Assembly (NCBI RefSeq): GCF_009664855.1
Contig: NZ_CP045928.1
Location: 5,294,119-5,358,118 of the forward strand
Source of the DNA: Flavobacterium sp. SLB02
GTDB taxonomy: Bacteria > Bacteroidota > Bacteroidia > Flavobacteriales > Flavobacteriaceae
Reading direction: 5' to 3'
DNA length: 64,000 bases
The notes under the pieces were generated by a model. It searched no databases. It worked only from the letters and a program-made list of their open reading frames with translations, and was not told the origin of the DNA. Positions 1,336-19,058 of the stretch are shown piece by piece; within the stretch, counting starts at the first letter, position 1, and each line of letters opens with the position of its first letter. The position numbers and the translations under genes were made by a program.

Positions 1336-1410
1336 AGTAAAATAAATGTTTAGAACGCTTTAATTTATTTTTTAATGCCCCTTAAAAAATTTCAGGACAA
1401 GCAAAACAAA

Positions 1411-4400
1411 ATGAAGACTATGAAAAAACCTACTATTTTTAAAGTATTTATTGCAGCGGTACTTGTATTGCTAAGTATCTCTTCTCACGCCCAGTTAAGA
1501 AAGGGTTTTACTCCAAGAAAAACAACCAGTTTAAATGGAGATATTTTAGTTATTGGAAACAATATTCTCAATAGAGATAATGGAAATGGTGAGCGTCCTA
1601 AAGATCCTTACGATGTAATTGGTGAAGACAGTAAGTTAAATGACGATTTCACTATGAAATATATTGATATTGATAATAATACTGATACATATAATTCAAG
1701 TTCTGCAAAATTAACAATTCCGCAAGCTAGTAAAACTTGTTATGAAATTGTGTATGCTGCTTTATATTGGGGCGGAACTTATCGTGGTACGGATAGGAGT
1801 AAGATTAATCAAGTCAAATTTAAGAGTCCCACAGCAGCTTATAAAACTATCACAGGAGAATTGCTTTTTGATGAAGGTGGTGCTGGTGTATCAAATCCAT
1901 ACGTAGCCAAACCATATGCTTGTTTTAAAGAAATTACAAATGAAGTTATTGCTGCTAAAGAGGGAGATTATACTGTAGGAGATATAGTTTGTACTGAAGG
2001 GAAATTTGCTCCAGGAGCCAGTGCAGCAGGTTGGTCTATTTTTATAATCTATAAAGATCCTTTACTGCCTAATAAATATATTACTAGTTTTGATGGTTTT
2101 AGTATTATTAGAAGTAGTGATGGTCCATTAGATATTCCTATTTCAGGTTTTAGAACGAATCCTTTTGGAGATGTAAATGTAAAATTAGCTTTTAGCGCTT
2201 TAGAGGGCGATAACCCATTAGAGGGCGACGGTCTGGAAATTAAAGGAGCAAAATCTGCTGCATTTGGAGCTATATCATCACTGGTAAGACCAATTAGAGT
2301 TACAACCGGAAGAAATCCTAAGTCTATACCGAACTTTTTTAATAGTAGTATTTCAGATGGAGATACTTATATGATGGATCGTAATCCTAAAAGTATAAAT
2401 ACACTTGGTTATGATGCTGGTGTTGTAAAAATAGATAACAAAAATAATTCAATAATACAGAACGACGAAACTAATGCAACTCTTAGAATTAGTACTTCTT
2501 CAGATTCTTATTATATGTTTTTTAATGCGTTAGCAGTAGAGATTATTGCTCCAAAAATAGTACTTAGGAAGAATGTGCTAGATAAAGACAATAAGAATAT
2601 TAATGGGAAGCCTGTAACACTAAGTCAGGATCTACAATACGAGATTAATTTTAGGAATGAAGGAAATGATGATGCTAAAAATTTTACAATTACAGACAAC
2701 CTTCCTAAAAATGTAATTTTCGGAGGTCTTAATAGTATTACGATGGACTCCAGAATTACCGCAGCTTATGACCCTGTGGCAAGAAGACTCGTTTTTACTA
2801 TACCTGATGCGTTGGTTGTTGCAAATGGTCCACTAATACCTTACTCAATTAAATTTAAAGTAAAAGTGGTAGATGATTGTAATGAGCTGATTGATGCTTG
2901 TGCCAACAAAATTGAAAATATAGCATTTTCTAAATATTATGGTGTAAAAAATACCACTCCTGAAGGATTTGGAGAAGGAAGTTACTCTACGATTTCGGAA
3001 TGTAATGTTGGAGAACCAACAGCAACAAACTTTTTAGTAGGTATAGATAAATGTTTGTTTAGTAGAGATGTTTCGCTTTGTGGTACCACAACTTTAACGG
3101 CTGCTTTGGGCTATAATACTTATGTATGGAAAGATCCAAACGGAGTTGTTTTTGGTGGTAACAACAGAACAGTTACAATTAACAAACCTGGAAAGTATAC
3201 GGTTGACAATAGTGGCGCAGCCAATTGTGAGCCAATACAACAAACATTTAATGTAACAGATTATCTTGCTTCAACTATTAAAAATCCGATCAAAGGAGAC
3301 AATATTGATCCGGCTACAGGAGAAGCTTTCACATGTGTTAGGGATAAAAAACCGTTTCCTAAAATTTTCTTATGTGGACTTAATGACAAGAGAGACATTG
3401 ATACACAGATTACCGGAGCTACAAAAGTAACGTGGCAGGAAACAACAGATGTGCCTTCAAAAGATGAGCCTAATCCGGAGAGCTGTCCTTATGAAGGAGC
3501 AACAAATTGGACAACAATTGTTGAAAATAGTACTAAATTTACTGCTGACAGACCGGGAGTTTTTAGAGTTGTTGTAAATTATGGGAACACTTGTGTGGTG
3601 ACACATTATTTTAATGTTTACCAAAACAAACTGGATTCTAAAGCTGAAAAGCAAGATATCATTTGTAATACCAAAGGATGGATTAAAGTTACAAATCCAC
3701 CTGAAAATACAGGTTATAATTATAGCCTTGATGGGGTTAATTATCAACCTGAAAGTACTTTCTATAATGTTCCGAAAGGAAGTTATAAAGTTCAGATTAG
3801 ACAGACTGTATTAATAGATGGTCAAATCTCAGCATGTCCTTTCTTTGTGGATGTTAATGTTGAAGAACTTGAATTTAAAACAGATCTTAAAGCAACTAAC
3901 CCAATTTGTACAGGAGATTTAGGAACTATAACTGCAACTATAAGTAATGTTCCAGGAAATTATAAATTTATTCTTAGAAAAAAAGGAACTACAGCTGAAA
4001 TTCAAAATACAGGATTAATAACAGATAATTACAAGGTATTTACTGGTGTTGAACCAGGTTTTGTATATGAGGTAATTATGTCTACTGCCAATAATGGCTG
4101 TAGTGTAATTAAAGAAGTAGAAGTTTTTGATTATCGTTTAACAGCTGAAGCTAAAGTTACTAAAACACTATCAGAATGTGGTGCGGGAGAAATTCTGGTA
4201 ACGGTAAAAGGAGGAACTCCAAGACCGGGACCACCACCATATTATATGTATTACATAAACGGGAATGTTAATTATGTTACAAATCCTAAAATAGTTGTTA
4301 CAGCGGAAACTTTACCTGCAGATGGTATCTTCAATATAGAGGTTGTCGATGACAAAGGATGTAAAGTTATGGCGCTTCCGGTAAAAATGGTTATGGTTCC

Positions 4401-7400
4401 AAAACCTACTATTACAGTTACACCTAGTAATGTTGATTGTTACGGAACTAACGGAGGTCAGATTAAAATTGATGTTTCACCTGCAGACTCTGGTTATGCC
4501 GTTTCATACAGCCTTAATAACGGAGCATTTAATTCTATTTCACCAATAACTAATCTTGCACCGGGAAGTTATTCACTTGTTGTAAAATATGTATATGAGG
4601 GTGCAGAATGTTTAGATGAGCCAAGAATAATAAAAATTACAGGTCCAGAAAATGCATTAAGTGCTTCTGCAGGAGTCTCTGAACTGGCTGGTTGTGGTCT
4701 GCCAGGATTTGAACATCAGGGAAAAATCAGAATTACAAATGTACAAGGAGGAACACCTCTTTATACTTATAGTTTTGATGATCAAAAAACCTGGATAAAT
4801 GAGAACGAAGCTTTTGTGGATCCGGGAAAATATACTGTATACGTTAAAGACAGTAAAGATTGTGTTTACGCAATGAAAGATATTGTTTTAGATCCTAAAC
4901 CAGCAGATCCTTCTATTGAGCCAAACCCTAAAGTAGTTTACAATTGCAACGGAACCGGAAATGCAACTATTGTAGTAAACAATACAGGTGGAGCAAATTA
5001 TACTTATGAGTACTATATTGATACCAAACCAAATACCCCTATTACCAGCAATGTATTTAATAATGTTCCTGTAGGGAAACATGTAATATCAGTAAAATAC
5101 AAAGCTGTTTCGGCAGCAACATATAGTAACTTATTACAAGAAGATTTTGGACAAGGAGGATATACTACAACTCCTGGAATCAGCCCGAAATATTGTTTTG
5201 AAGATGAAACGACTCCACATCCGGCAACTTTTCCATCGATATGTGGTAACATCAATGATTATCAGATAAACGATGGTAAATATGCTGTTGCAAGTAGTAT
5301 AAAAACAACTTTTGGAGGTACTTGGGTAGTTGCAAAAGATCACACTTTACCTGCTGATAAATTTGGAAGATTTTTATGTGTTAATATCGGAAGTTCAGCT
5401 GGAGTTGGAGGTATTATTTACAGTAAACCTATTAAAGATGTTATTGTAGATCAACCTGTAATTATTTCATTATGGGCAGAAAATTTAATGAAGAGTACTA
5501 CTGGATCCAATTATTACGATCCTGAATTAACTATACAATTAGTTAATGACCTAGGCGGACCAGGAGAAACTATCGTTGCAACAACCGATACGGCAAATCC
5601 TTGGAAAGTACCAAGAAATGAAATTTGGAATTATAAAGAATTGTCTTTAAATCCTGGTGCATACAATAATCTTAGTTTTGTAATTCGTTCTTATAATAAT
5701 AAATTCAGCGGAAATGATTTACTTGTAGATGATATTTGGGTTCGTCAATTACCTAAATCTTGTATAACAGAGAAGAAATTTGATGTTATTATCGAAACCA
5801 ACAAAGCATTTAAAGTTTCAGAACCTGTAATTGACAATGCCACTTGTAGTGATAAAAACGATGGTAAGATCACACTTACTGTTGAAAATTTTGATGCAAA
5901 AGATGGATTTAAATATTCTCTTGATAATGGTGGAACCTGGAATACAGCAACAACCTCACCATTTACCATTTCTGGATTAGCCAAAGGAAATTATAAAATT
6001 ATCGTTAAGAATGATGATGCTGGATTATGTCAAAGTTCTTTCGAAAAAGAAATAACAGCACCAACAACGATTACCACAACAGCAAGTGTTACAAAACCTT
6101 CTACATGTATTTTGGGAGCGTCAATTACGGCTATTCCGGTAGGAGGTTCGCCTAAATATACTTACGAACTTTATCATGCAAATGGTACGATTTACAGAAC
6201 CAGTGACAAAGCTACATTTGATGATGTACCAGAGGGATCCTATTTTGTAGTAGTTAAAGATAAAAACTCTTGTGCTTCTTCAGCTTCAGATCCTGTAGAA
6301 GTAAAAGATCCGACTAAACCAAAAATAACCTTGGACGAGTCTTCTGACTTATGTTATGATGCTGCCAATAAAGCCACTATTGTTGTTAAAGTAGAGGGAG
6401 GAATAGCGCCTTTCTATTACAGCTTGAACGGAGCAACAGCTCAAAAAGATAATAATAAATTTGAAGTTGGGCCAGGAACATACTCAGTTGTAGTAACAGA
6501 CGGTAACGGATGTATTGCTGATGCAATTACAGGAATTCAAATTGGAAAACAAATTATTGCAAGTCCTCGTATAACTAAATTAATAGACTGTACATTAACA
6601 CCGGAAGCTGAAATCACAATTGTTGCTTCAGAAGGAATTGCGCCTTATACTTATAAAGTATCAGAAGACGGTGGAACTACTTTTGCTGATATGACTAGTA
6701 ATATCTATAAAACATCTAAAGTAGGTAGTTATGTATTTAAAGTTACAGATTCAAAAGGATGTTCTGTAGTTACTGCTGCTGCAAAAGTAGATACAAAACT
6801 AACTCCAACAGCTTCAATAGCAAGCCAGACAAATCCAAAATGTAATAATGACTCAAATGGTTCATTTACAGTTTTACCAGCAGGAGGATCAGGGCCAACT
6901 TACCAATTTAAATTTAATGGTGGTAGTTATGGTACATCTGCTACGTATTCAAACTTAAATGCGTTTGTAGGTGCAGTAAATACCAGAAAATATACGTATC
7001 AGGTAAAAGACAGTAAAGGTTGTGAATCAATAGTTTATGAAGTTACTTTAACTAACCCAACAAAAGTTGCAGTTAAAGGTAGTTTCCCGGCTAATACAAC
7101 TTGCAGCACCAGCACGGTAATCACTATTATCGGTGAAGGTGGAGCAGGCGGTTACAAATATAATTTTGATGGTGGCACAAGTTATAATGATGTAACTACC
7201 AAAACAGTTACAAATACAACTTCTGAGCAAACGATTAAATTTTATGTAAAAGATGCTAACGGATGTACAGCCGAAAATGAAATTAAAGTTCCGGCATTTA
7301 ATCCGCCAACTTTAATTAATTTTTCTGTACCGGCAGCAATTACTTGTAATAAAAACAACACAAGTCTAACGCTTACAACAACTGGCGGAATTGCTCCAAT

Positions 7401-10400
7401 TACTTATGAAGTAACAGGAGGACCAACTTCACCACCTTCAAACACTACAGGTATTTTTACAGGATTAGTGGCAGGTGAGTATTCATTTAAAGCAACAGAT
7501 GCGAGAGGATGTAGTGTAAATGATAAGAAAACTATTGACCAAGCAGTTAAAATCAAAGCTGAAGGTTCAAAAGTAGATGAAGTATGTTATGATGCTAAAA
7601 ATGGTAAAGCTTCATTTACAGTGTCTGACATAAGCAGTACAGGTAACTTTAGCTATACTTTTTCTCCAAATACTGGTACTCCAAACGTCAACGGAAATGT
7701 AGTAACCTATACTAATTTAGCTCCGGGAACCTATACTTTTGTTGCAACTGATCTTGCAACAGGATGTAGTTCAGATAGCAAACAGGTAACTGTGGGTACT
7801 GCAACTGCAATTAATTTTACTGTTAATGCATCAAAAATTAGTTGTAATAATAAAATTGCAACGCTTACAATAACAGGTATATCAGGAGGTAGCGGTAACT
7901 ATACTTATGCTTATGCAAAAAGTCCGTCTACTGTTCCAAGTACCCCTTACGGAACAATTTTAACAGTTGATACAGCTGTTTTAACAACTAGTATAGATGT
8001 TTATGTAAAAGATGTAAATAATTGTGCGGTTAAGAAAACAATTGCAATACTAACAGAAGATCTTCCAACTATCAATCCTATTGCAGCGCAATGTTATCCA
8101 GGAAGTCCTGTTTCTGTAACAATTACAGGAACTTTTGCAACACCGGCAACATTTAGTAAAAATGGTACTGATTTTGGAGATTCAGCTACATTTAGCTTAA
8201 CTCCTGGAAATTATAAATTAACAGTAAAAGATAAATTTGGTTGTGAAGCTTTTATCAATTACATAGTTGCTCAGCAGTTAACAATTACACCAGAGGTAGT
8301 CGTAGATACTGATTGTACATCAGAAACAACTATCAAGTTAACTTCTGGCGGTGGTAAAGGTATTCATACTTTTGCAGTTTCATTTAATGGAGGAAGCTAC
8401 TCAACAGTTGCAAGCCCTTATACTGCAACTGCAGCGGGAACTTACAAGTTTAGAGTTAATGATAGTGCTAATCCAGTTTGTTATGCTTATACAGCAGATA
8501 TTCCGGTAACACTTAAAGCAACTGTTTTAACATTTGATACAAGTCATAAGGATGTTAAATGTTTTGGTGGTGCCACGGGAAGTATTTTAGTTACACCAAC
8601 TTCCGGAAAAGCGCCACATACATACTCTATTAAGAGAGTTGGAACTCCGGCTACAAATTATACAATAAATAATCCTTCTGGATTAATAGAAGGAACTTAT
8701 AATATCGTTGTTAAAGATGCCATAGGTTGTGAGGGTACTACACAAGTGGTAATTAAGCAGCCAACAGAACTTAAAGCAGATGCAAAAATTGATGCATTTA
8801 CTTGTAATACTTCAAATACTAAAGAATCTAAAGATGTTGTTATAACAGCAATAGGAGGAATATTACCATACACTTATAGTTTTAATAACGGATCATATGG
8901 TAATTCAAATACTTTACAAGTAGCTGATAACACTAAAGTACAAACCGTTAAATATTCTGTAATGGATGGTAATGGTTGTGAGACAGGTATACAAACACTT
9001 ACAATACAACCGCTTAATCCGCCTAAAATTGAAAAAGTTGTTGCAACTCCTATCTATTGTAATCCTACTGCAAGTCAAAAAAGTACAGCTACAATTACTT
9101 TAGTTAACGGTAGTGGTGCAGTAACTTCATATACAATTGTTTCAGGACAAACTAATACAACTGGTGCTACAAATGGAATTTTCACTGATCTTGTTTCAGG
9201 TAACTATACTTTTAGAGCAACAGCTGCTAATGGTTGTTATGATGAATTCAATATAAATATTCCTCCATTGGTTTCAATGACTGCAATAGCAACTAAACTT
9301 AATGATGTTTACTGTTTTGCAATTCCAAAAGAAAAAACAGGAAATATTAGATATAATGTTGGAAAATTTACAGGTTCATACAGCTACTCAATAAACGGTG
9401 CAACTCCTATAGCAAATCAAACATTAAATACTTTTACCTTATCTAATCTTGAGGAAGGTCAGTATGATGTATTATTTACAGATGAAACTACAAATTGTAC
9501 TGTTTCAACAAAAATTACAATTGTTCAGCCTGCAAATCCTTTAGAGTTATTTTTAGATTCTAATGTAAATGCAAATTGCGGAAAAGCGACTTCTAAAGTA
9601 ACAGTTCATGCTACAGGAGGAACGCTTGACTATAAATATGCTTTCGTGCAAAATAATGTTACTCCAGCAGATTCTGATTATAAAGATGCTGCAAGCGCTG
9701 ATCTAAATCCAACAACAAATGCAAATTGGGATGTTTGGGTAAAAGACGGTAATAAGTGTACCGTTAAAATAGATGTACCTATTGCTAAAGATTTAGCACC
9801 AACGGTTACTGCTGAAGTAAAAAATCAATGTACTGCTTCTGGAAATGCATTTATAATTGAAGCTGAAGGTCATGGTGGTGTTGCGCCATATACTTTTACA
9901 ATTAATACAGGTGTTGTACCAAATCCGTCAAATACATTTACGGTAGGAGCAGGAACTTATACCATTACTGTAAAGGATGCTAACGGTTGTACGGGAACTA
10001 CAAGTGTTACTGTTTATGATGCAATGACTGTAAGTGCAGAGTTGACTACGGGGCTTACATGTACATTAGTTACTCCAATTGATGGTAATATAAGAGTTAA
10101 AGTTGTAAGTGGAGGTAAACCAGGTTTCACTTATAAAGTAAAAGTTGATGCAGGTACTTATCCAGTTACAGGAAATACTTTTACAGGAACATTTTTCGAT
10201 TATCCAGTTTCAACAGCTGGTATCTATCAATTCGAAATTACTGATGCAAACGGATGTAAAAAAGAAACAGTTGCAGTTGAAGTTAAAGATCCTGAAGCAG
10301 TGACAGCTAAAGTAACCCTTGTAAGTCCTACTTGTAATGGGGATAAAGACGGATCAGTAAAACTGGAAGCATTAACAGGAGTTGGGCCATTTAAATATAG

Positions 10401-13400
10401 TTTTAATGGCGGAGCTTTCATTGATCAATTTGTTTACGGTGGTTTAGCAGCAGGAAGCTATGCTTATGTTGTTAGAGATAGTAAAAATTGTGAAGTTAGT
10501 GGTACAGCGAATGTCTTAGCTCCTGCAGCGATTGATACTGATATTAATTTAAATGGAATTACATGTAACAGCACACAACCAGGAAGCATAGATATTAAAC
10601 TTAAAACTACTTCTGGAGGTACGGCGCCATTTACGTATTATTTATATGATAATACTATGACACAAATAGATACCTACACTGCAAATACAATTGCAGATGC
10701 AAAGACATACCATAATTTCCCTAATTTAGTTTTCGGTGATTATTTCATTAATATAGTAGATGCAAAAGGATGTAAGTTTGAAAGTACTGCATTAAGAATT
10801 GCACCGCCTCCTTATTTAAAATTTAAAGCGCAAGCAATAGGTCTAAATTGCGATGAAGGTATCTCTGTTAAATTAGAGCTACTAGCTGGTTCAGGTGTTC
10901 CGGATTTCACATATTCTATTTATGGACTTGGTACTTCATCTGGTGCTATACCAGACAGAGAATACACTTTTGTTGGTTTAGAACAAAATACGAACTACAC
11001 TTTTATGGTGGTAGATGCCAATGGTTGTCCATCTTATTTCGATTATAAAACACCTAAGATTTCAAACATGACCGTTACGGCTACACCAAAAAATGTAACT
11101 TGTTACGGCTCTGGTAATGGTGAGGTAAGTTTTGAAGTAACTGATTTAGGAGGGACTGCAATTTATTATGAAGTAAGAGATAATTTGACCAATTTGCCAA
11201 TTGCAACTCCAAAATTTGGTAATATTACAACAGCTCCATACAGTGCAACAATAACAGGTTTATTGCCTGGTAATTACACGCTTTATGTGAAAGAAAACAT
11301 AACTAATTGCTCATCTACCGCTGTTTTCCAAATAAAACAGCCAGCATCAGCACTGAAAGCGTCAGTTACGAATGTGATAAATGCAAATTGCAACAAAGGT
11401 GCGATTGTAACGGTTACTGCTGGTGGTGGAACAGGGCCATATCAATATGGTATTTACGATCCGCTTACAGCTACAGCGCCAACTTCGTTTGGTGATGAAA
11501 ATGTTTTAGAATTGCCTTATAGTGCTACTACTACAAATTGGAATATTGTAGTAAAAGATAGCCAGGGTTGTCCTGTTACTTTAGGTCAGGTGATTACTAA
11601 AGATCCAAGTCCGGAAATTACTTTAGCTGTAGCTAATAAATGTGTGGCTCAGGATAAATACGGAATTGAGGTTACTTTAAGCAACGCAGGAATAGCGCCA
11701 TATTATATAAAATTGGATAATGGTTTATTTGAAAAATATACAGGTACTTTCCCTTATACGATAACTGATCAACATTCAGGAAGTCATAAAGTTACAATCA
11801 AAGACAAAAATGATTGTGAATATGAACAAACTATTACTATTGATGAGCCTCTTAAATTAGTGCCATCTCCATCTTTACTACCTGATTGTGGTATTAGTAA
11901 TGGTGCAATATCATTTGTTCCAACTGGTGGCTCAGGTGACTACAGTTATAATATTAGTCCAAATAACCCTGGTATGTTAATAGATCCTATTGCTAAAACT
12001 GTTACAGGTCTTACAGAAGATATTACGTATACCTTAACGATGACAGATAATGTTAATACGGGTTGTTCTACTAGTGCAGAATTTAAATTAGAAAAAGGAA
12101 CTGATGTTACTTTTGATGCTGTGGTAACTAATGTACTTTGTAAAGGTGGAGCTACTGGAACAATTACAGTAAATTTATTGGCAGGAAATAATGATCCGGC
12201 TTATACTTATGCTATTTCATTAGTCTCAGGTGCAGCTTTACCGGCAGGTATTGTACAAACAGATAATGTATTTACAAATCTTCCTAAAGAAAACTATAGA
12301 ATTACCGTGACTTCTAAGAGAAAATGTTCGCTATACTTAGATTATCAAGTTGGGGAACCAACAGATGATTTAGAAGTTAAGCATACTCTTAAAGATTTTG
12401 GATGTCTTACAGGAAATAATCCGGAAGAAGCTGAAGTAACATTTGAAGCAACTGGAGGAACAGGTTCATATAAATATCAATATAGTTTTGATGGAGGCTT
12501 AAATTCTGACGGTAGTAAAGTGATTATTCCAAATGATAAAAACTCGCATACAGTAGATTATTTTGTAACTGATGCCAATGGTTGTACAGCAAATGGAAGT
12601 GTAACAGTTAGTCCTTTCATACAATTAACAGATATTGATTTTGATGTAACAGTAGAACCTACTTGTCCAGATGAATTAACAGAAGTTACTTTAACGGCAG
12701 TTGGTGGTTATGCAATTGATAAATACGAAATGATTGCTCCAACGTATCATGATAACTTAACTTCACCAGTATTTGCTGGCTTAAGTGCAGGTACTTATAT
12801 GTTTAGAGTGACAGATGCTAGAGGATGTTCTGTAGAAAGACCATATACAATTAAAAATTTAACTAAAATTAATATTGTTAAGACATCATCAGTTAATGTA
12901 AGCTGTAATACAGCAAACGGAACTGATAATAATGGAGAAGCAACTTTTACAGTTTCTGATTTTAGTTCAACTGGAAACTATTCGATTGCAGTAACAAGTA
13001 ATCCAACCGGATTGGCTTATAACCCACCAACTCAAGCTAATGATGTTATTACATTAACAGGACTTGAACAAGGAGAGTATACAGTAACAATAACAGATAC
13101 TAAAACACAGTGTTCTAAATCGGCTAATGTTATAATTACAATGCCGGCTCCAATTGACTTTACGCCAAATGCGACTAAAGTATATTGTTCACAAGCAGAC
13201 TCAGAAATTACGGTGTCTGGTATAACAGGAGGAACTGCAAATTATACGTATGCTGTTGTTAAAGCTGGTGAAGAAGTTCCTGCTACAACAGAATTCAAAG
13301 ATGTTACTATACCTTTTACAGCTCATACAAATTTAACAGATCTATCATGGGATGTTTATGTACGTGATGTTAAGGGATGTACATCTGTACTTAAACCAAT

Positions 13401-16400
13401 TACAGTTGTTTACAATGCAGCTCCAGAACTTAAGGTGCCGGCACAGAAATGTTTTGTAGATGCAGATATTACAATTGATTTTGCTGATGCTGCAATATCT
13501 ACAACTTACAATGGTATTAAAATATTTACTGTAAATGGTTTACCAACAACTAATAACATAACATTTACAAAAGCAGGTAAATACAAAATTGTCTTAACTG
13601 ATGATAACGGATGTACTGATGATATAGAATACATAATTGAAGAGCGTTTAATTGCTACTGCAACAGTAGATAAAGATCTTTTCTGTACAGGTGATGTACC
13701 AGCAAGAATTGTTGTTGAAATTCAAGGTGGTAAAAAGGATTACGCCTACCAAATGTACTTAGACGGAAACGCAGTTGGTGGTCCAAAAACAACTACGGGT
13801 AATTTTACAGAATCTGTAACTGCTTTCGGGGTTTATACTTTTGAAATTTCAGATAGTAATCTCCCATGTACGGTTACAACCACTCCTATAACAGTTAACG
13901 AGCCTGTAATTCCAACACTTGCAGATTCACAAACTAATGTAAGATGTTTTACTGAAAGTAACGGTAGTTTAACTGTTGTACCATCAGGTGGAGTTGGACC
14001 TTATAAATTTGTACTTACAAGTGTAAAAGGTATAGTTAATACTACTGGTGATACAAGCGGAGCTTATACAGGTTTACCTGCGGATATTTACACAGTAGTG
14101 GTAACAGATGGAAAAGGTTGTTCTTCATTAGCAAGTACAATTACAATTACAGAGCCACCTTTATTAGAGGCAGATCATTCAGTTACACCAAATACATCTT
14201 GTAGCACACTTACAGAAATAGTGGTAGAAGGTAAAGGTGGTACTGGAGCAGGAACATATCAGTATAACTTTGATGGTAAAGGATATGATTCACTAGATCG
14301 TATTTCAGTAAGTAATGATGGTTCAATTGCATCAGTTACCTATACAGTTAGAGATGCTAATGGATGTGAAACAAGTCCGGTAACAGTTCCGATTGTTCCG
14401 TTAAACAAGCCAAGTGCTTTAACATTCTCACCAACAGCTATTACTTGTGCTGCTGTAAATAGTAATGTTACAGTGAAAGCTACAAATGGTGTAGGTGCAT
14501 TAGAATTTAAAATTATAGAATTCAATGGAGTACCAACAACACTTTATGCACCAATCACAACATCAGGAAGTGCGGTTCCGGCTGTATTCAGCGGATTACC
14601 ATTTGGTGATTATAAATTTGAGGTAACTGATAGTAATAAGTGTTCATTGAGTGATGTATTAACTATAAAAGATGTAGTTAGAATCATTGTAGATGGTGAG
14701 TCTTTCGCTAAGACTTGTATTGGTAATAATGATGGTAAAGCAATATTTACGGTTTCTAATTTCAAAGGAACTTATACTTATACAATAACTAAAGACACTG
14801 ATGCTCCTTCGGCACCAGTTACAACTTCTAATGCTGTAGTTACTTTATCTAACTTAGCTACGGGATCTTACAAAATTGATATCCTTGATGATATCACAAG
14901 TTGTCCAACAACTTTCACAGTTGTTATAAACGATCCTGTTGTTGTTACAGTTACAGAAGAAGATAATGATAATGCTAATTGTACAACTGGAGCTCTTGTT
15001 ACAGTTGCAGGTCACGGTGGAACACCTGATTATACCTATTCATTTGTTCCTGTAAGTCCAACAGCAACACCTGGAGTATTCTTGCCAGATGCTACAAGAG
15101 AGTTAGATCCTGCAACACCAGCATGGTATGTTTATGCAAAAGATCAAAACGGATGTATTTCTGTTCCGATAATTGTAAACATTCAAAAAGATCCGTTACC
15201 AGCAGGATTTACTGCTAGTGTAACATCACAATGTGCTGATGCTTTAGGAAATTATGAAATTGTAATAGATGATTCTGCTGCAGTTGGAGTAGGACCATTT
15301 ACTTACAGTGTTGGAGACGGATTCCAATCTGGTTTGAAGTTCAGTGTAAAAGCGGCTAAAACTTATGACATAGTTGTAAGAGATAAATTTGGTTGCGAAA
15401 CTACATTCCCGGCATTGATCACTATTTTACAACCTGTAATTTTAGAGGTGAAAAAAGATATCTACCCAACATGTGTAGACGGTGACGGACAAGTTACTGC
15501 AAGTGCAACTGGAGGATCAGGTAACTTTAGTTTTACTATTGATGGGGTTAGAACAATAACAGGAACACCTGCAGTATTTGATAAGTTATTTGCTGGTTCA
15601 CATACTATTATTGTTACTGATTTAGGAACACCAAGTAATTGCACAGATGAAGTTGTATTTGTTTTAGATGCAGCAACAAAAGTTACCGGATTTGATGCAA
15701 TTCCTACTATGGTTTCTTGTAATGGTGGAAATGATGGAACAATTACAGCAAGTCTTGCTCCAACAAGTCCTGGAGTAAACGATAACCCTAAATACATGTA
15801 CAGTCTAAATGGTGGAACACCACAAGAGAGTCCTGTATTTAAAGGATTAATAGCAGGAACATATACAGTTTCTGTACTTTCAGGAAGAGGTTGTCCTGCT
15901 GATAAAACTGTTGAAGTGAAGCAACCATTGGAAATTAAGGTACCAAACCCAGTTGTAACTCCTTATGGTTGTACTACTGATAACATTAGTAACTATGCAA
16001 CTATAACGGTTAATGGTGTTACAGGTGGTACAGGAGAGTATACTTATGAGTTTATAAATGGTGTAACACAGGTTTATAAAGGACCAAGAAATGTCTTTAT
16101 AGAAAAAGACTACAAAGGTGGTTCTTATACAATAAACGTTTATGATGAAAACGAATGTATTGGTACTGCGGTTGGAACATATGAAATCGTTCCATTTACT
16201 GCAATGGATAATGTGGTTATCAAAGTTGATAATGCGATTACTTGCGTAGACAATGAAGATATCACAGTAACAGTAAAATCAGTAACAGGAGCTGTTATTA
16301 CCGGATTAAACTATAGTTTAAGCGGAACAAACGGAACTGTTTATGGTCCGACTCCTAGTACAGACGGAATCTTTACAGATTTAGGAATTGGTAATTATAT

Positions 16401-19014
16401 CGTGACAGTAACGAATCCTGCTACAAATTGTACGATTCAGGCAGTTCACTTTATCAATAATCCAAACACATTCGATATCATCGCTAAACCTGAAAATGAG
16501 AATGTTTGTTTTGGAACAACTACAAGAGTACAATTAACTTTCGTAGACAATCAGTTAATTCCAGATAATGATGCAGGTCCGTTCGAGTATACAATTACGG
16601 GTGGAGTTTTACCAATCACAGGTACAACAACAAGTGCAGGTCCAATTTGGGTTGATAACCTGGCAGCAGGTCAGTACAAAATTGTAGCTAAACTGGTAAA
16701 CAAACCAGAATGTACAGTTGAGACAACATTTACAATCAACCAGCCAACAGCTGCATTAACGGTTACTAAAACGCAGTCAGAAATTACTTGTATTAAAGAT
16801 AATAATGATGGTGTAATCGTTGCTACAGCAACTGGAGGATGGCCAGGTGAGTACTTATACGAATTAAGATCAGGTACAACTATTATTAAAGCATATAGCG
16901 ACTCGCCAATTTTTGACAAGTTAACAGCTGGAGATTACAGAATATATGCTAAAGATGCCCTGGGTTGTGAAAGTTTTGTTGATGCTAAATTAGAAAACCC
17001 AACACCAATTAGTATTACAATTAGCGCTACACCAATGCTTACTTGTTTCGACAATGAAGATGGCGTAGTAACGATTAATACAATTAACGGAGGTTCAGGA
17101 AACTATAGCTATACATTACATGGTGTATTAACTGACGGAACTGTTACAGTTGAGCAATCACAAGGAGGAAACCAGTTTAGAGGTCTAAAAGCAGGAACAT
17201 ATTATGTTACTGTAAATGATACCTGGACTTGTACAAATGACTCTAATAAAGTGACAATTGATCAGCCAGAAATTGTAAAAGCAAATTTAGAAATTCAAAA
17301 AACTGAAAGTTGTAAACAAGTTCCGGTTGTGAGGTTAACAGCTACTGGAGGAAATGCTCCGTACTATTATAGTGCAGATGGAATTAATTACACAGGACCA
17401 TTTAACTCTTTTGTAGATATTACATTACCTGTAACAACAGCAAAAACGGAATACAAATATTTTGTAAAAGATGCTAACGATTGTAAGAGCTACGTGTCTA
17501 ATACTAGTGAATTCTCACCAGTTCCTGCATTAGGATTTGAGCGCTCTAGCGAAATTGATATTAAGTGTAAAGGTGGCGCTACGGGTTCTATCAGTGTGTT
17601 AGCAAATGGAGGTTTAGGAAACTATGTTTATACCTTACAAAATGCTGCAGGTGTTGATATTACTCCAGCTCCGGCACAGGTTATTCCAGGTACATTTACA
17701 GAATTGCCAATTGGAACTTATATCGTAAAAATTACAAGCTTAGATTGTGATACAGTATCTACTTTGTTCGAGTTAACAGAACCGGATACTTCATTGACAG
17801 CTGATGCTATTGCAACACCTTTAACTTGTAATGGTTATAACAATGGTAAAATTACTGTAAACGCAACTGGTGGTGTAGGAGCATATAAATATGCAATCGA
17901 ACCAGAATTTAAACAGTTCTTTGACAAAAATGTATTCGAAAACCTTAAACCAGGTTTCTACGATGTATTAGTTCAGGATGAAAACGAATGTTATGTATTC
18001 CTTAAAGACGTAGAAGTAAAAGAACCAGCACCGCTTTCGGCCGTGGAGATTCCAAATTCTATGATTCCAGAGGTTTGTGTTGGAGACAAAAATGGTGTAT
18101 TTGCGATTCAGATTATTGGAGGAACAGCGCCTTATACAGCAAGTCTTGATAATGACAAAGGTCCATTCCTTCCGGTTGATGGAGATACAGAAGATTATAA
18201 TGGATTATCAGGAGGTAAGCATATAGTTTACATTATCGATAACAGCGGATGTATGACTGAAGTTACAATCGATATGCCGGAACCAGTAAAGCTTGATCCA
18301 ACTGTAGAGGTAAATTACGATTGTGTAAACAATTCACAATCTAATATGGTTACAGTAACAGTTGATGAGAGTAATACAGATCTTACACAAGTAGATTATG
18401 CACTTGATAGTGATGTAGGTCCTTTCCAGCCAGGGAACATCTTTACAAATGTTGCTCCTGGAAAACACTTTATCGTGGCAAGACATACTAACGGATGTAA
18501 AGTGCCAACGGCTAGTTTTGATATCAAAGCATACGATCCGTTAACACTTATAAAAACTCCAGGTCAGGAAGAAATGAATATCCTTTCAGTTACTGCAGCT
18601 GGTGGAGCTCCTGGTTACGAGTATAGCTTCAACGGAGAGCCGTTTACATCTTCAAACAAATACAAATACTACAAAACTGCAGATTATGTTGTAATTGTGA
18701 GAGATAGAAACGGATGTACAGCGACCATAACTCTTCCTGGAATTTACACAGACGTTTGTCTTGATAATTACTTTACTCCTGGTGGTGCTACAAACACAAC
18801 ATGGGGTCCTGGTTGTACGAATATTTACAACAACCTTGAGTTCTCTATCTTCGACAGATACGGTCGTGTAATTGCCAAGTATCACTACGGTCAAAAATGG
18901 GATGGTAGATACAACGGTGCGGAATTACCTTCAGGAGATTACTGGTATGTTCTTAAACTGAACGATGCTAAAGATGACAGAGAGTTTGTAGGACATTTCA
19001 CTTTATACAGATAA
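1411..19014 (+). CDS. sprB: SprB giant gliding-motility adhesin
   Basis: About 5,867 residues. A frame start exists at 1375, but ATG 1411 (MKTMKKPT) or 1420 gives a clean signal peptide ending at SSHAQ; 1411 is chosen. Order: signal peptide; N-terminal globular region (to ~375); a DUF11-like domain (~377-500, LQYEINFRNEGNDDAKNFTI); early repeats; a jelly-roll-like insert (~1240-1450); then some fifty ~85-residue Ig-like SprB repeats, each with an early Cys and ending in a D-x-NGC-type motif. The last ~85 residues (from about 5780, including EFSIFDRYGRVI and GHFTLYR) are a type B type IX secretion sorting domain, the gliding-associated C-terminal family. In F. johnsoniae SprB is a similarly huge mobile surface adhesin (about 6,500 residues) propelled by the Gld motor. 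sprF follows immediately. The repeats are diverged at DNA level, so this is not recent slippage. Confidence 0.95.
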   Translation: MKTMKKPTIFKVFIAAVLVLLSISSHAQLRKGFTPRKTTSLNGDILVIGNNILNRDNGNGERPKDPYDVIGEDSKLNDDFTMKYIDIDNNTDTYNSSSAKLTIPQASKTCYEIVYAALYWGGTYRGTDRSKINQVKFKSPTAAYKTITGELLFDEGGAGVSNPYVAKPYACFKEITNEVIAAKEGDYTVGDIVCTEGKFAPGASAAGWSIFIIYKDPLLPNKYITSFDGFSIIRSSDGPLDIPISGFRTNPFGDVNVKLAFSALEGDNPLEGDGLEIKGAKSAAFGAISSLVRPIRVTTGRNPKSIPNFFNSSISDGDTYMMDRNPKSINTLGYDAGVVKIDNKNNSIIQNDETNATLRISTSSDSYYMFFNALAVEIIAPKIVLRKNVLDKDNKNINGKPVTLSQDLQYEINFRNEGNDDAKNFTITDNLPKNVIFGGLNSITMDSRITAAYDPVARRLVFTIPDALVVANGPLIPYSIKFKVKVVDDCNELIDACANKIENIAFSKYYGVKNTTPEGFGEGSYSTISECNVGEPTATNFLVGIDKCLFSRDVSLCGTTTLTAALGYNTYVWKDPNGVVFGGNNRTVTINKPGKYTVDNSGAANCEPIQQTFNVTDYLASTIKNPIKGDNIDPATGEAFTCVRDKKPFPKIFLCGLNDKRDIDTQITGATKVTWQETTDVPSKDEPNPESCPYEGATNWTTIVENSTKFTADRPGVFRVVVNYGNTCVVTHYFNVYQNKLDSKAEKQDIICNTKGWIKVTNPPENTGYNYSLDGVNYQPESTFYNVPKGSYKVQIRQTVLIDGQISACPFFVDVNVEELEFKTDLKATNPICTGDLGTITATISNVPGNYKFILRKKGTTAEIQNTGLITDNYKVFTGVEPGFVYEVIMSTANNGCSVIKEVEVFDYRLTAEAKVTKTLSECGAGEILVTVKGGTPRPGPPPYYMYYINGNVNYVTNPKIVVTAETLPADGIFNIEVVDDKGCKVMALPVKMVMVPKPTITVTPSNVDCYGTNGGQIKIDVSPADSGYAVSYSLNNGAFNSISPITNLAPGSYSLVVKYVYEGAECLDEPRIIKITGPENALSASAGVSELAGCGLPGFEHQGKIRITNVQGGTPLYTYSFDDQKTWINENEAFVDPGKYTVYVKDSKDCVYAMKDIVLDPKPADPSIEPNPKVVYNCNGTGNATIVVNNTGGANYTYEYYIDTKPNTPITSNVFNNVPVGKHVISVKYKAVSAATYSNLLQEDFGQGGYTTTPGISPKYCFEDETTPHPATFPSICGNINDYQINDGKYAVASSIKTTFGGTWVVAKDHTLPADKFGRFLCVNIGSSAGVGGIIYSKPIKDVIVDQPVIISLWAENLMKSTTGSNYYDPELTIQLVNDLGGPGETIVATTDTANPWKVPRNEIWNYKELSLNPGAYNNLSFVIRSYNNKFSGNDLLVDDIWVRQLPKSCITEKKFDVIIETNKAFKVSEPVIDNATCSDKNDGKITLTVENFDAKDGFKYSLDNGGTWNTATTSPFTISGLAKGNYKIIVKNDDAGLCQSSFEKEITAPTTITTTASVTKPSTCILGASITAIPVGGSPKYTYELYHANGTIYRTSDKATFDDVPEGSYFVVVKDKNSCASSASDPVEVKDPTKPKITLDESSDLCYDAANKATIVVKVEGGIAPFYYSLNGATAQKDNNKFEVGPGTYSVVVTDGNGCIADAITGIQIGKQIIASPRITKLIDCTLTPEAEITIVASEGIAPYTYKVSEDGGTTFADMTSNIYKTSKVGSYVFKVTDSKGCSVVTAAAKVDTKLTPTASIASQTNPKCNNDSNGSFTVLPAGGSGPTYQFKFNGGSYGTSATYSNLNAFVGAVNTRKYTYQVKDSKGCESIVYEVTLTNPTKVAVKGSFPANTTCSTSTVITIIGEGGAGGYKYNFDGGTSYNDVTTKTVTNTTSEQTIKFYVKDANGCTAENEIKVPAFNPPTLINFSVPAAITCNKNNTSLTLTTTGGIAPITYEVTGGPTSPPSNTTGIFTGLVAGEYSFKATDARGCSVNDKKTIDQAVKIKAEGSKVDEVCYDAKNGKASFTVSDISSTGNFSYTFSPNTGTPNVNGNVVTYTNLAPGTYTFVATDLATGCSSDSKQVTVGTATAINFTVNASKISCNNKIATLTITGISGGSGNYTYAYAKSPSTVPSTPYGTILTVDTAVLTTSIDVYVKDVNNCAVKKTIAILTEDLPTINPIAAQCYPGSPVSVTITGTFATPATFSKNGTDFGDSATFSLTPGNYKLTVKDKFGCEAFINYIVAQQLTITPEVVVDTDCTSETTIKLTSGGGKGIHTFAVSFNGGSYSTVASPYTATAAGTYKFRVNDSANPVCYAYTADIPVTLKATVLTFDTSHKDVKCFGGATGSILVTPTSGKAPHTYSIKRVGTPATNYTINNPSGLIEGTYNIVVKDAIGCEGTTQVVIKQPTELKADAKIDAFTCNTSNTKESKDVVITAIGGILPYTYSFNNGSYGNSNTLQVADNTKVQTVKYSVMDGNGCETGIQTLTIQPLNPPKIEKVVATPIYCNPTASQKSTATITLVNGSGAVTSYTIVSGQTNTTGATNGIFTDLVSGNYTFRATAANGCYDEFNINIPPLVSMTAIATKLNDVYCFAIPKEKTGNIRYNVGKFTGSYSYSINGATPIANQTLNTFTLSNLEEGQYDVLFTDETTNCTVSTKITIVQPANPLELFLDSNVNANCGKATSKVTVHATGGTLDYKYAFVQNNVTPADSDYKDAASADLNPTTNANWDVWVKDGNKCTVKIDVPIAKDLAPTVTAEVKNQCTASGNAFIIEAEGHGGVAPYTFTINTGVVPNPSNTFTVGAGTYTITVKDANGCTGTTSVTVYDAMTVSAELTTGLTCTLVTPIDGNIRVKVVSGGKPGFTYKVKVDAGTYPVTGNTFTGTFFDYPVSTAGIYQFEITDANGCKKETVAVEVKDPEAVTAKVTLVSPTCNGDKDGSVKLEALTGVGPFKYSFNGGAFIDQFVYGGLAAGSYAYVVRDSKNCEVSGTANVLAPAAIDTDINLNGITCNSTQPGSIDIKLKTTSGGTAPFTYYLYDNTMTQIDTYTANTIADAKTYHNFPNLVFGDYFINIVDAKGCKFESTALRIAPPPYLKFKAQAIGLNCDEGISVKLELLAGSGVPDFTYSIYGLGTSSGAIPDREYTFVGLEQNTNYTFMVVDANGCPSYFDYKTPKISNMTVTATPKNVTCYGSGNGEVSFEVTDLGGTAIYYEVRDNLTNLPIATPKFGNITTAPYSATITGLLPGNYTLYVKENITNCSSTAVFQIKQPASALKASVTNVINANCNKGAIVTVTAGGGTGPYQYGIYDPLTATAPTSFGDENVLELPYSATTTNWNIVVKDSQGCPVTLGQVITKDPSPEITLAVANKCVAQDKYGIEVTLSNAGIAPYYIKLDNGLFEKYTGTFPYTITDQHSGSHKVTIKDKNDCEYEQTITIDEPLKLVPSPSLLPDCGISNGAISFVPTGGSGDYSYNISPNNPGMLIDPIAKTVTGLTEDITYTLTMTDNVNTGCSTSAEFKLEKGTDVTFDAVVTNVLCKGGATGTITVNLLAGNNDPAYTYAISLVSGAALPAGIVQTDNVFTNLPKENYRITVTSKRKCSLYLDYQVGEPTDDLEVKHTLKDFGCLTGNNPEEAEVTFEATGGTGSYKYQYSFDGGLNSDGSKVIIPNDKNSHTVDYFVTDANGCTANGSVTVSPFIQLTDIDFDVTVEPTCPDELTEVTLTAVGGYAIDKYEMIAPTYHDNLTSPVFAGLSAGTYMFRVTDARGCSVERPYTIKNLTKINIVKTSSVNVSCNTANGTDNNGEATFTVSDFSSTGNYSIAVTSNPTGLAYNPPTQANDVITLTGLEQGEYTVTITDTKTQCSKSANVIITMPAPIDFTPNATKVYCSQADSEITVSGITGGTANYTYAVVKAGEEVPATTEFKDVTIPFTAHTNLTDLSWDVYVRDVKGCTSVLKPITVVYNAAPELKVPAQKCFVDADITIDFADAAISTTYNGIKIFTVNGLPTTNNITFTKAGKYKIVLTDDNGCTDDIEYIIEERLIATATVDKDLFCTGDVPARIVVEIQGGKKDYAYQMYLDGNAVGGPKTTTGNFTESVTAFGVYTFEISDSNLPCTVTTTPITVNEPVIPTLADSQTNVRCFTESNGSLTVVPSGGVGPYKFVLTSVKGIVNTTGDTSGAYTGLPADIYTVVVTDGKGCSSLASTITITEPPLLEADHSVTPNTSCSTLTEIVVEGKGGTGAGTYQYNFDGKGYDSLDRISVSNDGSIASVTYTVRDANGCETSPVTVPIVPLNKPSALTFSPTAITCAAVNSNVTVKATNGVGALEFKIIEFNGVPTTLYAPITTSGSAVPAVFSGLPFGDYKFEVTDSNKCSLSDVLTIKDVVRIIVDGESFAKTCIGNNDGKAIFTVSNFKGTYTYTITKDTDAPSAPVTTSNAVVTLSNLATGSYKIDILDDITSCPTTFTVVINDPVVVTVTEEDNDNANCTTGALVTVAGHGGTPDYTYSFVPVSPTATPGVFLPDATRELDPATPAWYVYAKDQNGCISVPIIVNIQKDPLPAGFTASVTSQCADALGNYEIVIDDSAAVGVGPFTYSVGDGFQSGLKFSVKAAKTYDIVVRDKFGCETTFPALITILQPVILEVKKDIYPTCVDGDGQVTASATGGSGNFSFTIDGVRTITGTPAVFDKLFAGSHTIIVTDLGTPSNCTDEVVFVLDAATKVTGFDAIPTMVSCNGGNDGTITASLAPTSPGVNDNPKYMYSLNGGTPQESPVFKGLIAGTYTVSVLSGRGCPADKTVEVKQPLEIKVPNPVVTPYGCTTDNISNYATITVNGVTGGTGEYTYEFINGVTQVYKGPRNVFIEKDYKGGSYTINVYDENECIGTAVGTYEIVPFTAMDNVVIKVDNAITCVDNEDITVTVKSVTGAVITGLNYSLSGTNGTVYGPTPSTDGIFTDLGIGNYIVTVTNPATNCTIQAVHFINNPNTFDIIAKPENENVCFGTTTRVQLTFVDNQLIPDNDAGPFEYTITGGVLPITGTTTSAGPIWVDNLAAGQYKIVAKLVNKPECTVETTFTINQPTAALTVTKTQSEITCIKDNNDGVIVATATGGWPGEYLYELRSGTTIIKAYSDSPIFDKLTAGDYRIYAKDALGCESFVDAKLENPTPISITISATPMLTCFDNEDGVVTINTINGGSGNYSYTLHGVLTDGTVTVEQSQGGNQFRGLKAGTYYVTVNDTWTCTNDSNKVTIDQPEIVKANLEIQKTESCKQVPVVRLTATGGNAPYYYSADGINYTGPFNSFVDITLPVTTAKTEYKYFVKDANDCKSYVSNTSEFSPVPALGFERSSEIDIKCKGGATGSISVLANGGLGNYVYTLQNAAGVDITPAPAQVIPGTFTELPIGTYIVKITSLDCDTVSTLFELTEPDTSLTADAIATPLTCNGYNNGKITVNATGGVGAYKYAIEPEFKQFFDKNVFENLKPGFYDVLVQDENECYVFLKDVEVKEPAPLSAVEIPNSMIPEVCVGDKNGVFAIQIIGGTAPYTASLDNDKGPFLPVDGDTEDYNGLSGGKHIVYIIDNSGCMTEVTIDMPEPVKLDPTVEVNYDCVNNSQSNMVTVTVDESNTDLTQVDYALDSDVGPFQPGNIFTNVAPGKHFIVARHTNGCKVPTASFDIKAYDPLTLIKTPGQEEMNILSVTAAGGAPGYEYSFNGEPFTSSNKYKYYKTADYVVIVRDRNGCTATITLPGIYTDVCLDNYFTPGGATNTTWGPGCTNIYNNLEFSIFDRYGRVIAKYHYGQKWDGRYNGAELPSGDYWYVLKLNDAKDDREFVGHFTLYR
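5806..16560 (+). repeat. Seven-domain super-repeat within sprB (period 1.73-1.81 kb)
   Basis: Seven repeat types (called a to g here) recur in fixed order. The first Cys codon of type a lies at 5845, 7585, 9313, 11101, 12904, 14716 and 16507, giving periods of 580, 576, 596, 601, 604 and 597 residues. Type b ends in a W/D-x-V-(Y/W)-x-(K/R)D motif, for example WDVWVKDGNKC and WDVYVRDVKGC. Type c follows at once with a second early Cys (VKNQC, VANKC, VTSQC). Type f usually ends in V-x-Y-x-V-x-DANGC. Type g often opens with NPP or a similar proline linker before another ITC. Six full periods are followed by a partial seventh and irregular repeats up to the sorting domain. Confidence 0.8.
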
Positions 19015-19058
19015 CAAAATAAGAGCCCCTAATGATGTTGTCTAAAAAATTAATTACA

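What the first reader, a model, noticed from the sequence alone, without database searches (positions are those of the whole stretch)
5806..16560. SprB repeats follow a seven-domain super-repeat, not a simple array
Reading the ~85-residue units in order, seven types (a to g) recur in the same sequence six times. The period measured between the first Cys codons of type a is 580, 576, 596, 601, 604 and 597 residues. The type f end (V-x-Y-x-V-x-DANGC) gives nearly the same periods: positions 7264, 8978, 10771, 12582, 14365 and 16155. The adhesin therefore seems to have grown by duplicating a seven-domain block, and keeping the order suggests that a fixed rod pitch or spaced binding sites matter. 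I am not aware of a description of such a higher-order period in SprB.
Basis: seen in the sequence. Interest (0 to 1): 0.75.

Follow-up and report, generated by a model that had tools for sequence, protein, structure and literature searches.

The report
Giant gliding adhesin with mirror-matched arms
The giant surface protein that lets Flavobacterium glide is built of seven-domain blocks arranged as two equal arms around a special domain pair at its exact middle, and both arms gain or lose blocks together, which suggests that it folds back on itself like a hairpin with the adhesive tip in the middle of the sequence.

Summary
The seven-domain super-repeat is real: domains at lags 7, 14, 21, 28 and 35 are alike, z = 15, 0 of 1000 shuffles. 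Relatives show that it is half of a stronger rule. In 105 full-length SprB arrays the number of blocks is 2, 4, 6 (this window), 8, 10, 12 or 16 (one of them read by labels). In 113 non-redundant arrays it changes at least 36 times on a tree and is odd once. A tip profile made from six-block arrays has its best match at the exact midpoint in 63 of 63 other even arrays, so the two arms have equal block numbers. Long arrays carry tandem duplications in both arms; in the F. johnsoniae-type protein both pairs are 99-100% identical in DNA. Mirror-placed domains co-diverge. The midpoint domains are the longest and, averaged over close pairs, the most divergent. Best explanation: the rod folds back as an antiparallel, paired hairpin, with the adhesive tip at mid-sequence and both ends near the cell. 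Equal arms are shown; pairing is inferred. No structure was seen, two recent swaps are one-sided, and one Arenibacter array is 3+2. The papers searched gave no earlier description.

The parts
1375..19014 (+). sprB, giant gliding adhesin, 5879 aa
   Evidence: ORF; PF13573 SprB repeats and PF13585 type IX C-terminal signal; synteny with the F. johnsoniae-type locus
1375..3384 (+). N-terminal unique region (residues 1-670): signal-peptide-like start (by eye) and a DUF11-type repeat
   Evidence: the G136 (F. johnsoniae-type) SprB matches residues 40-750 only over the query's 593-710
3385..5808 (+). N-cap: seven domains; the last (4909-5808, residues 1179-1478) is 300 residues long through an insertion, used as landmark
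5809..7548 (+). N-arm block 1 (abcdefg)
7549..9276 (+). N-arm block 2
9277..11064 (+). N-arm block 3, next to the tip
10528..11352 (+). tip module: domains at offsets -2, -1 and 0 around the array midpoint (midpoint between bases 11064 and 11065); offset 0 is usually the longest domain, and these offsets are on average the most divergent in close relatives
11065..12867 (+). C-arm block 1 (its first domain, 96 residues, is the second half of the tip pair and the longest domain of the window apart from the landmark)
12868..14679 (+). C-arm block 2
14680..16470 (+). C-arm block 3
16471..18759 (+). C-terminal stalk: one aberrant block (labels AEEfEEE) plus two domains
18760..18975 (+). CHU_C type IX secretion C-terminal domain
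19032..20033 (+). sprF (PorP/SprF family), expected anchor and carrier of SprB
   Evidence: 92% identical to the neighbour of sprB in G136

Best explanation
SprB is a fold-back (hairpin) adhesin. Shown: the repeat array has two arms with the same number of seven-domain blocks, meeting at a conserved domain pair at the exact midpoint; block number differs between species by two or more, never by one except once; long arrays have tandem copies in both arms; and mirror-placed domains tend to diverge together. Inferred: the N-arm runs out from the base, the chain turns at the midpoint, and the C-arm runs back alongside in antiparallel register, so that each domain type in one arm faces the same type in the other. 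That would be why the order of seven is kept and why a block is not added to one arm alone. Both the N-cap and the C-terminal stalk, which SprF anchors, would then lie near the cell. The long, fast-changing domains at the sequence midpoint would form the distal adhesive tip. A two-stranded rod is stiffer than a single string of domains, which suits an arm that must carry propulsive force. Its reach would be set by block number, one block per arm adding seven domains.
For: (1) Block number even in 105 arrays (the one printed as 3 reads as 2 by labels), and in 112 of 113 non-redundant arrays with at least 36 changes on the tree. (2) Tip profile from six-block arrays has its best match at the exact midpoint in 63 of 63 other even arrays with 2-16 blocks, including Arenibacter and Maribacter, and in six arrays from six further genera, all 2+2. 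(3) Tandem copies sit in both arms, although arms of one protein are only 28-49% alike: G112 (16 blocks) N-arm neighbour identities 33,83,97,98,100,48,38 against C-arm read backwards 33,84,99,100,99,53,33; G397 31,83,100,89,36 against 36,83,100,99,36; G136 99.4% and 100% in DNA. (4) In 49 six-block proteins residual distance correlations between arms peak in the mirror register (r 0.27; first of 42 rotations and orientations), also beyond the first block from the tip (0.21 against -0.04 for non-mirror pairs). (5) In 26 close pairs, arm divergence profiles correlate in mirror register (0.33 at register -1, 0.29 at -2) but not with the opposite arm of other pairs (0.04 at -2), 0 of 5000 permutations at -2; parallel orientation -0.17. 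(6) Midpoint domain longest in 75 and second in 25 of 104 arrays; over 21 close pairs the mean divergence is greatest at offsets -2, -1 and 0. (7) Arm lengths differ by 1.8% on average. (8) F. johnsoniae SprB, about 71 domains by profile (G136), is stated to be a ~150 nm filament. At ~4 nm per domain (recalled) a straight chain would be ~280 nm; nine stalk plus 28 arm domains gives ~148 nm. (9) Weak: the four-domain tip model has pTM 0.78, and offsets -2 to 0 fit straight fibronectin rods badly (22-25 A over three domains) while offsets 0 to +2 fit well (8.3 A).
Against: The 14-domain model has pTM 0.40. The bend is inferred from superposition errors alone, and N-arm stretches outside the tip also fit rods poorly (15.7-19.9 A), so bending is not unique to the tip. 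Two close pairs show one-sided segment swaps in the N-arm (G006/G217, G049/G344). Of 22 long arrays the mirror order of neighbour identities fits better than the parallel one in 12: 9 of 11 with ten or more blocks but only 3 of 11 with eight; in G103, G289, G357, G389, G393 and G396 some copies are much less alike in one arm than in the other. Mirror-tree signals are weak in the eight- and two-block sets (0.12, 0.09); the best register is -1 in two sets and -2 in three. Beyond the first block the parallel diagonal of 21 also gives 0.19 in six-block arrays (all seven such pairs join mirror-partner blocks 2 and 5), against -0.03 over the whole arms. In 9 of 21 close pairs the most divergent three-domain window lies more than four domains from the midpoint. 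Single pairs range from r = -0.66 to 0.94, and a few of the proteins paired there are near-identical to each other. Arenibacter palladensis (L074) has 3+2 blocks: its C-arm block is a chimera of two blocks of its sister, hence a recent deletion or a draft-assembly error. G008 (masked bases) is unresolved. The 150 nm figure comes from secondary statements; the original paper was not held.
Confidence: 0.72

Rival explanations
1. Antiparallel homodimer: two SprB chains lie side by side, head to tail, so block i of one chain faces block n+1-i of the other. The midpoint pair would sit on the two-fold axis rather than at a tip.
For: Gives the same mirror constraints on duplication and co-divergence.
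Against: The C-terminal anchors would lie at opposite ends of the rod, which is awkward for a filament held by SprF on one cell. A full-length dimer of F. johnsoniae SprB would be ~280 nm at ~4 nm per domain, not ~150 nm. A midpoint on a dimer axis has no obvious reason to be the longest and, on average, most variable part.
Confidence: 0.11
2. Arch without pairing: both ends of SprB are held at the cell surface and the midpoint is the apex, so the arms must be equally long, but they do not touch along their length.
For: Explains equal arms and a variable apex, and tolerates one-sided swaps.
Against: Does not explain conservation of the exact seven-domain register, nor co-divergence of mirror-placed domains away from the tip.
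Confidence: 0.09
3. One reading: a single linear rod with a seven-domain pitch or spaced binding sites that grew by block duplication.
For: Period seven is real and blocks do duplicate.
Against: Predicts odd and even block numbers alike and copies at random places; observed 112 of 113 even, copies in both arms, and the tip central in 63 of 63 even arrays.
Confidence: 0.04
4. A mutational or technical cause: the array changes by a 14-domain unit, or segmentation or assembly makes counts look even.
For: Near-identical tandem blocks can collapse in draft assemblies; many draft sprB frames are short, as if cut at contig ends.
Against: The copies are not adjacent 14-domain units but lie in both arms, which are only 28-49% alike. 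By my reading of the tables counted arrays come from genomes in one or two contigs, and all are even.
Confidence: 0.03

Closest known systems
SprB of Flavobacterium johnsoniae (gliding adhesin carried by SprF)
   Same: Positional orthologue: flanking genes match G136, the F. johnsoniae-type genome, at 57-96%; G136 SprB has 6497 aa, the published length; 4+4 blocks with the tip at the midpoint.
   Different: The window gene has 3+3 blocks instead of 4+4 and a different, longer N-terminal region. The passages read call SprB a filament or adhesin and mention no super-repeat or arms.
GhpA, grappling hook protein of Aureispira (PDB 9flp and related entries)
   Same: Giant Bacteroidota surface protein; its solved domains match the SprB profile (E 8e-15) and rank first by Foldseek for both models.
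   Different: Solved fragments are numbered along one chain (neck, fragments, base). GhpA was not tested here for mirror arms; that it assembles as a multimer is recalled.
Giant rod adhesins with serial Ig-like domains (for example SiiE; also titin and fibronectin as rods)
   Same: Serial Ig- or fibronectin-like domains; such chains appear among the fold matches.
   Different: Recalled as single rods whose domain number varies freely; no paired, mirror-matched arms are known to me.
Filamentous haemagglutinin, once proposed to be a hairpin (recalled, no call)
   Same: Idea of a long adhesin folded back so that both ends are near the cell.
   Different: Different fold and secretion route; no mirror-matched duplications recalled.

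Membership tests
SprB gliding adhesin | SprB repeats (PF13573) along the chain | tested here: met
   144 and 186 bits for the two halves, cut-off 28
SprB gliding adhesin | type IX secretion C-terminal domain (CHU_C) | tested here: met
   38.4 bits, cut-off 27
SprB gliding adhesin | sprF immediately downstream | tested here: met
   window 19032-20033, PorP/SprF family 245.6 bits, cut-off 90.55
SprB gliding adhesin | same gene neighbourhood as F. johnsoniae sprB | tested here: met
   sprF 92%, pgk 93%, next genes 78 and 87%, upstream genes 57-96% against G136; that G136 is F. johnsoniae is inferred
SprB gliding adhesin | moves on the cell surface and is needed for gliding | not testable with these tools
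   experiment needed
simple tandem-repeat adhesin (uniform units) | units equally alike at all lags | tested here: not met
   only multiples of seven stand out; contrast L172 in the same genome, where similarity is highest at lag 1 and falls slowly
antiparallel hairpin rod | equal arms around a midpoint turn | tested here: met
   equal arms and a conserved midpoint: exception L074; the turn itself was not seen
antiparallel hairpin rod | direct contact between mirror-placed domains | tested here: inconclusive
GhpA-type grappling hook | sequence relation of the rod domains | tested here: met
   E 8e-15 over profile positions 121-597
GhpA-type grappling hook | multimeric hook assembly | not testable with these tools
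   no structure of SprB available

The most novel reading that the evidence does not exclude
SprB is a protein with two arms constrained like a palindrome: a two-stranded antiparallel rope of paired seven-domain blocks, whose length evolves by compensating duplications at mirror positions and whose adhesive end is a hypervariable cassette at the exact middle of the gene. The rule appears to hold across Flavobacteriaceae and lets the fold of a giant adhesin be read from genome sequence alone.
Probability: 0.63. Interest if true: 0.92.

Novelty: new variant of a known kind. Interest (0 to 1): 0.86.

Why it matters
The shape of SprB, the arm that pulls gliding Bacteroidota over surfaces, is not given in any passage I could read. 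A mirror-matched hairpin would say where the adhesive tip is (mid-sequence, not the N-terminus), where both ends are, and how reach is set. It would reconcile ~6500 residues with a ~150 nm filament and explain why a seven-domain order is kept. It would also be a case in which copy-number changes at two separate places in one gene compensate each other, with at least 36 changes of number on the tree. Each statement can be tested in a laboratory strain by deleting blocks in one arm or both.

Tried and rejected
Residue-offset self-comparison of the whole protein: no 575-605 offset among the 40 best. Parallel pairing of the arms (block i with i + n/2): fits worse in 9 of 11 arrays with ten or more blocks, but better or equal in 8 of 11 with eight, whose low-high-low pattern reads much the same both ways. 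N-arm and C-arm blocks as two clean sequence classes: not so in the window, where within-arm and between-arm identities are alike and block 5 resembles N-arm blocks of G136. AlphaFold of 14 central domains: pTM 0.40, no use for arm geometry. Solved SprB structure by sequence: none listed for the central region; only GhpA, two decoration proteins and a 32 kDa protein. Reading the hairpin from fold libraries: indirect only. A search for papers on the Aureispira hook listed nothing I used.

Arrays cut by contig ends, with masked bases or without the landmark were not in the 105. G275 is in the 105 but its landmark was a spurious early hit; labels read two blocks. For the tree, 13 arrays without the landmark plus G275 were given block numbers from labels; these 14 are also among the 64 arrays. 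A further 15 cut, masked or otherwise unused arrays were inspected with the tip profile: G130, G033 and G111 read as 1+1 arms before a longer stalk, G208 as 2+2, G008 (66 masked residues) has an irregular N-arm and is unresolved, the others are incomplete or masked. Of 30 genomes of other genera searched, 24 matched, seven were tried and six could be read across the array; in G497 the landmark insertion is lacking and labels were used.

Full report
What is there. Window 1375-19014 encodes a 5879-residue SprB with PF13573 repeats and a type IX C-terminal signal, followed by sprF. Flanking genes match those of G136, a one-contig 6.1 Mb genome whose SprB has 6497 aa, the published F. johnsoniae length; that G136 is F. 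johnsoniae is my inference. Cut at Cys pairs, domains D7-D48 show one period, seven: scores 63, 68, 75, 72 and 56 at lags 7 to 35 against 23-41 elsewhere, z = 15.2, 0 of 1000 shuffles. Profiles of the seven types read as ABCDEFG in order, with departures, in orthologues.

Even numbers. I fetched sprB genes from Flavobacterium genomes and named contigs from Flavobacterium, Arenibacter and Maribacter, and cut them with a profile of the window's domains. Counting from the N-cap domain with the long insertion, 105 complete arrays have 2 (10), 4 (20), 6 (52), 8 (11), 10 (9), 12 (1) or 16 (1) blocks, and one printed as 3 reads as 2 by labels. On a quick tree of 113 non-redundant SprB C-terminal regions (14 of the block numbers from labels) the number changes at least 36 times (38 with weak branches collapsed), with one odd state, Arenibacter palladensis L074. 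If odd and even changes were equally likely, at most one odd in 36 would have odds near 5e-10 (my arithmetic). L074's missing block is a recent fusion of two neighbouring C-arm blocks, as its sister L071 shows; in a draft genome this may be an assembly error. By my reading of the tables, 31 of the counted arrays come from genomes in one or two contigs, and all are even.

Equal arms around a tip. A two-domain profile built only from Flavobacterium six-block arrays was scanned over 64 other arrays. Its best match is at the exact midpoint in all 63 with even counts, scoring 122-238 bits against 86-129 for the runner-up; in L074 it sits after three blocks. In six further genera, read from overlapping search loci, the arrays are 2+2 with the tip central. 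A four-domain tip profile matches 72 of 119 genomes drawn from the family, window genome included; weaker matches there also fall beside the tip, so not every match need be a tip. The first domain after the midpoint is the longest in the array in 75 and second in 25 of 104 proteins. The two arms differ by 1.8% of their length on average, 6.5% at most.

Duplications in both arms. Neighbour identities along the N-arm and, read backwards, the C-arm: G397 31,83,100,89,36 and 36,83,100,99,36; G112 33,83,97,98,100,48,38 and 33,84,99,100,99,53,33; G049 48,84,43 and 41,83,45. In DNA the G136 copies are 99.4% and 100% identical. In the long arrays compared the two arms are 28-49% alike, so one tandem duplication cannot add to both. 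The match is not perfect: in G103, G289, G357, G389, G393 and G396 some copies are much less alike in one arm than in the other. Mirror order fits better than parallel order in 9 of 11 arrays with ten or more blocks (clearest in G357, G103, G289, G112), but in only 3 of 11 with eight, where both orders look much the same.

Co-divergence. In 49 six-block proteins, distance matrices of single domains were corrected for the mean of the others and correlated between arms. The mirror register has mean r 0.27 and ranks first of 42 rotations and orientations; beyond the first block from the tip it is 0.21 against -0.04 for non-mirror pairs. Sets with 4, 8, 10 and 2 blocks (27, 11, 8 and 9 proteins) give 0.30, 0.12, 0.20 and 0.09, with the best register at the mirror or one domain off. 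Block means are positive between mirror partners and near zero or negative otherwise in six- and four-block sets. Beyond the first block the parallel diagonal of 21 also reaches 0.19 in six-block arrays, over seven pairs that all join mirror-partner blocks 2 and 5; over the whole arms it is -0.03. In 26 close pairs, with no protein used twice though a few are near-identical to each other, divergence profiles of the two arms correlate in mirror register (0.33 and 0.29) but not with the opposite arm of other pairs (0.04; 0 of 5000 permutations), and the parallel orientation gives -0.17; single pairs range from -0.66 to 0.94. Examples: G159/G373 and G052/L057 differ over about five to six domains on both sides of the tip; G389/G396 over about ten and nine; G015/G345 at the bases of both arms. 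Against this, G006/G217 and G049/G344 each have a one-sided N-arm swap.

The tip. Averaged over 21 close pairs the three midpoint domains (-2, -1, 0) are 16-18 points below the pair's median identity, the lowest of the offsets listed (-14 to +13); G004/G385 have a median of 86% but 30, 28 and 36% there. The most divergent three-domain window lies within four domains of the midpoint in 12 of the 21 pairs and elsewhere in 9. A four-domain tip model has pLDDT 90 and pTM 0.78. Offsets -2 to 0 superpose badly on straight fibronectin rods (22-25 A over three domains; four domains 34 A), while offsets 0 to +2 superpose at 8.3 A and 0 to +4 on titin at 16.6 A; but N-arm stretches also fit poorly (15.7-19.9 A). 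This hints at a bend at the tip and no more; I could not see coordinates.

Mechanism. The simplest model that makes unequal arms costly, keeps a seven-domain register and makes mirror domains co-diverge is an antiparallel hairpin with paired arms and the midpoint as distal tip. Two papers state ~150 nm for F. johnsoniae SprB (passages in PMC13104615 and PMC4094633). At ~4 nm per domain (recalled) 71 domains would span ~280 nm, and stalk plus one arm (37 domains) ~148 nm. Contact between arms, the place of the N-terminus and the adhesive role of the tip are inferred.

Prior work. Searches with SprB and repeat/gliding, tandem repeats, filaments and 150 nm, hairpin, AlphaFold and immunoglobulin-like, sprC/sprD/sprF and repeat, antiparallel, and one with folds back (most lists were capped) gave no title or abstract opening that suggests a description of blocks, arms or even numbers. 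I read passages only, of PMC12635249, PMC9870892, PMC13104615, PMC4094633, PMC10202324, PMC10994853, PMC12618676 and PMC8400371. The last reports that F. psychrophilum isolates differ in the number of repeat units of a gliding motility-associated protein, which is related but not this rule. PMC5524665, listed, was not opened. PMC3704026, the filament paper that PMC13104615 cites, was not held.

Noticed in passing
L040+L039 (G130) and L034 (G033), region after the two blocks: These SprB proteins have only 1+1 arm blocks but a long C-terminal stalk; in G130 the 53 stalk domains compared form a period-three array (lag-3 score 281 against 65-70 at lags not divisible by three). In G033 the three-fold period is faint.
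   Followed up: partly
L172 (G000:C1:2660001-2671500): Another SprB-repeat protein of the window's genome (3096 aa) is a simple array: mostly ~76-residue units, most alike at lag 1, with no period of seven. A useful contrast to SprB.
   Followed up: partly
The genome search, for example G409, G437, G497, G513, G430: Several genera of the family carry a second tip-matching ORF of about 2740 aa some 9-14 kb from another (in G409, G437, G497 and G513 a longer one, in G430 one of like size).
   Followed up: no
L175:6929-10030: A 1033-aa ORF upstream of sprB has a PorP/SprF-like region at residues 1-301 and matches the gene at the same place in G136 at 79% over 547 residues.
   Followed up: partly
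window 1375-3384 against L044/L045 (G136): The N-terminal region of SprB seems exchangeable: the window's residues 40-750 match G136 only over ~118 residues near the end of that stretch, although the loci are syntenic.
   Followed up: no
G312:C1 around 684169: A long sprB-like frame (7924 aa) changes frame or stops near its C-terminal end.
   Followed up: no
window 37540-39600 and 39810-41870: Two neighbouring ORFs of exactly 686 aa on the same strand, perhaps a tandem gene pair.
   Followed up: no
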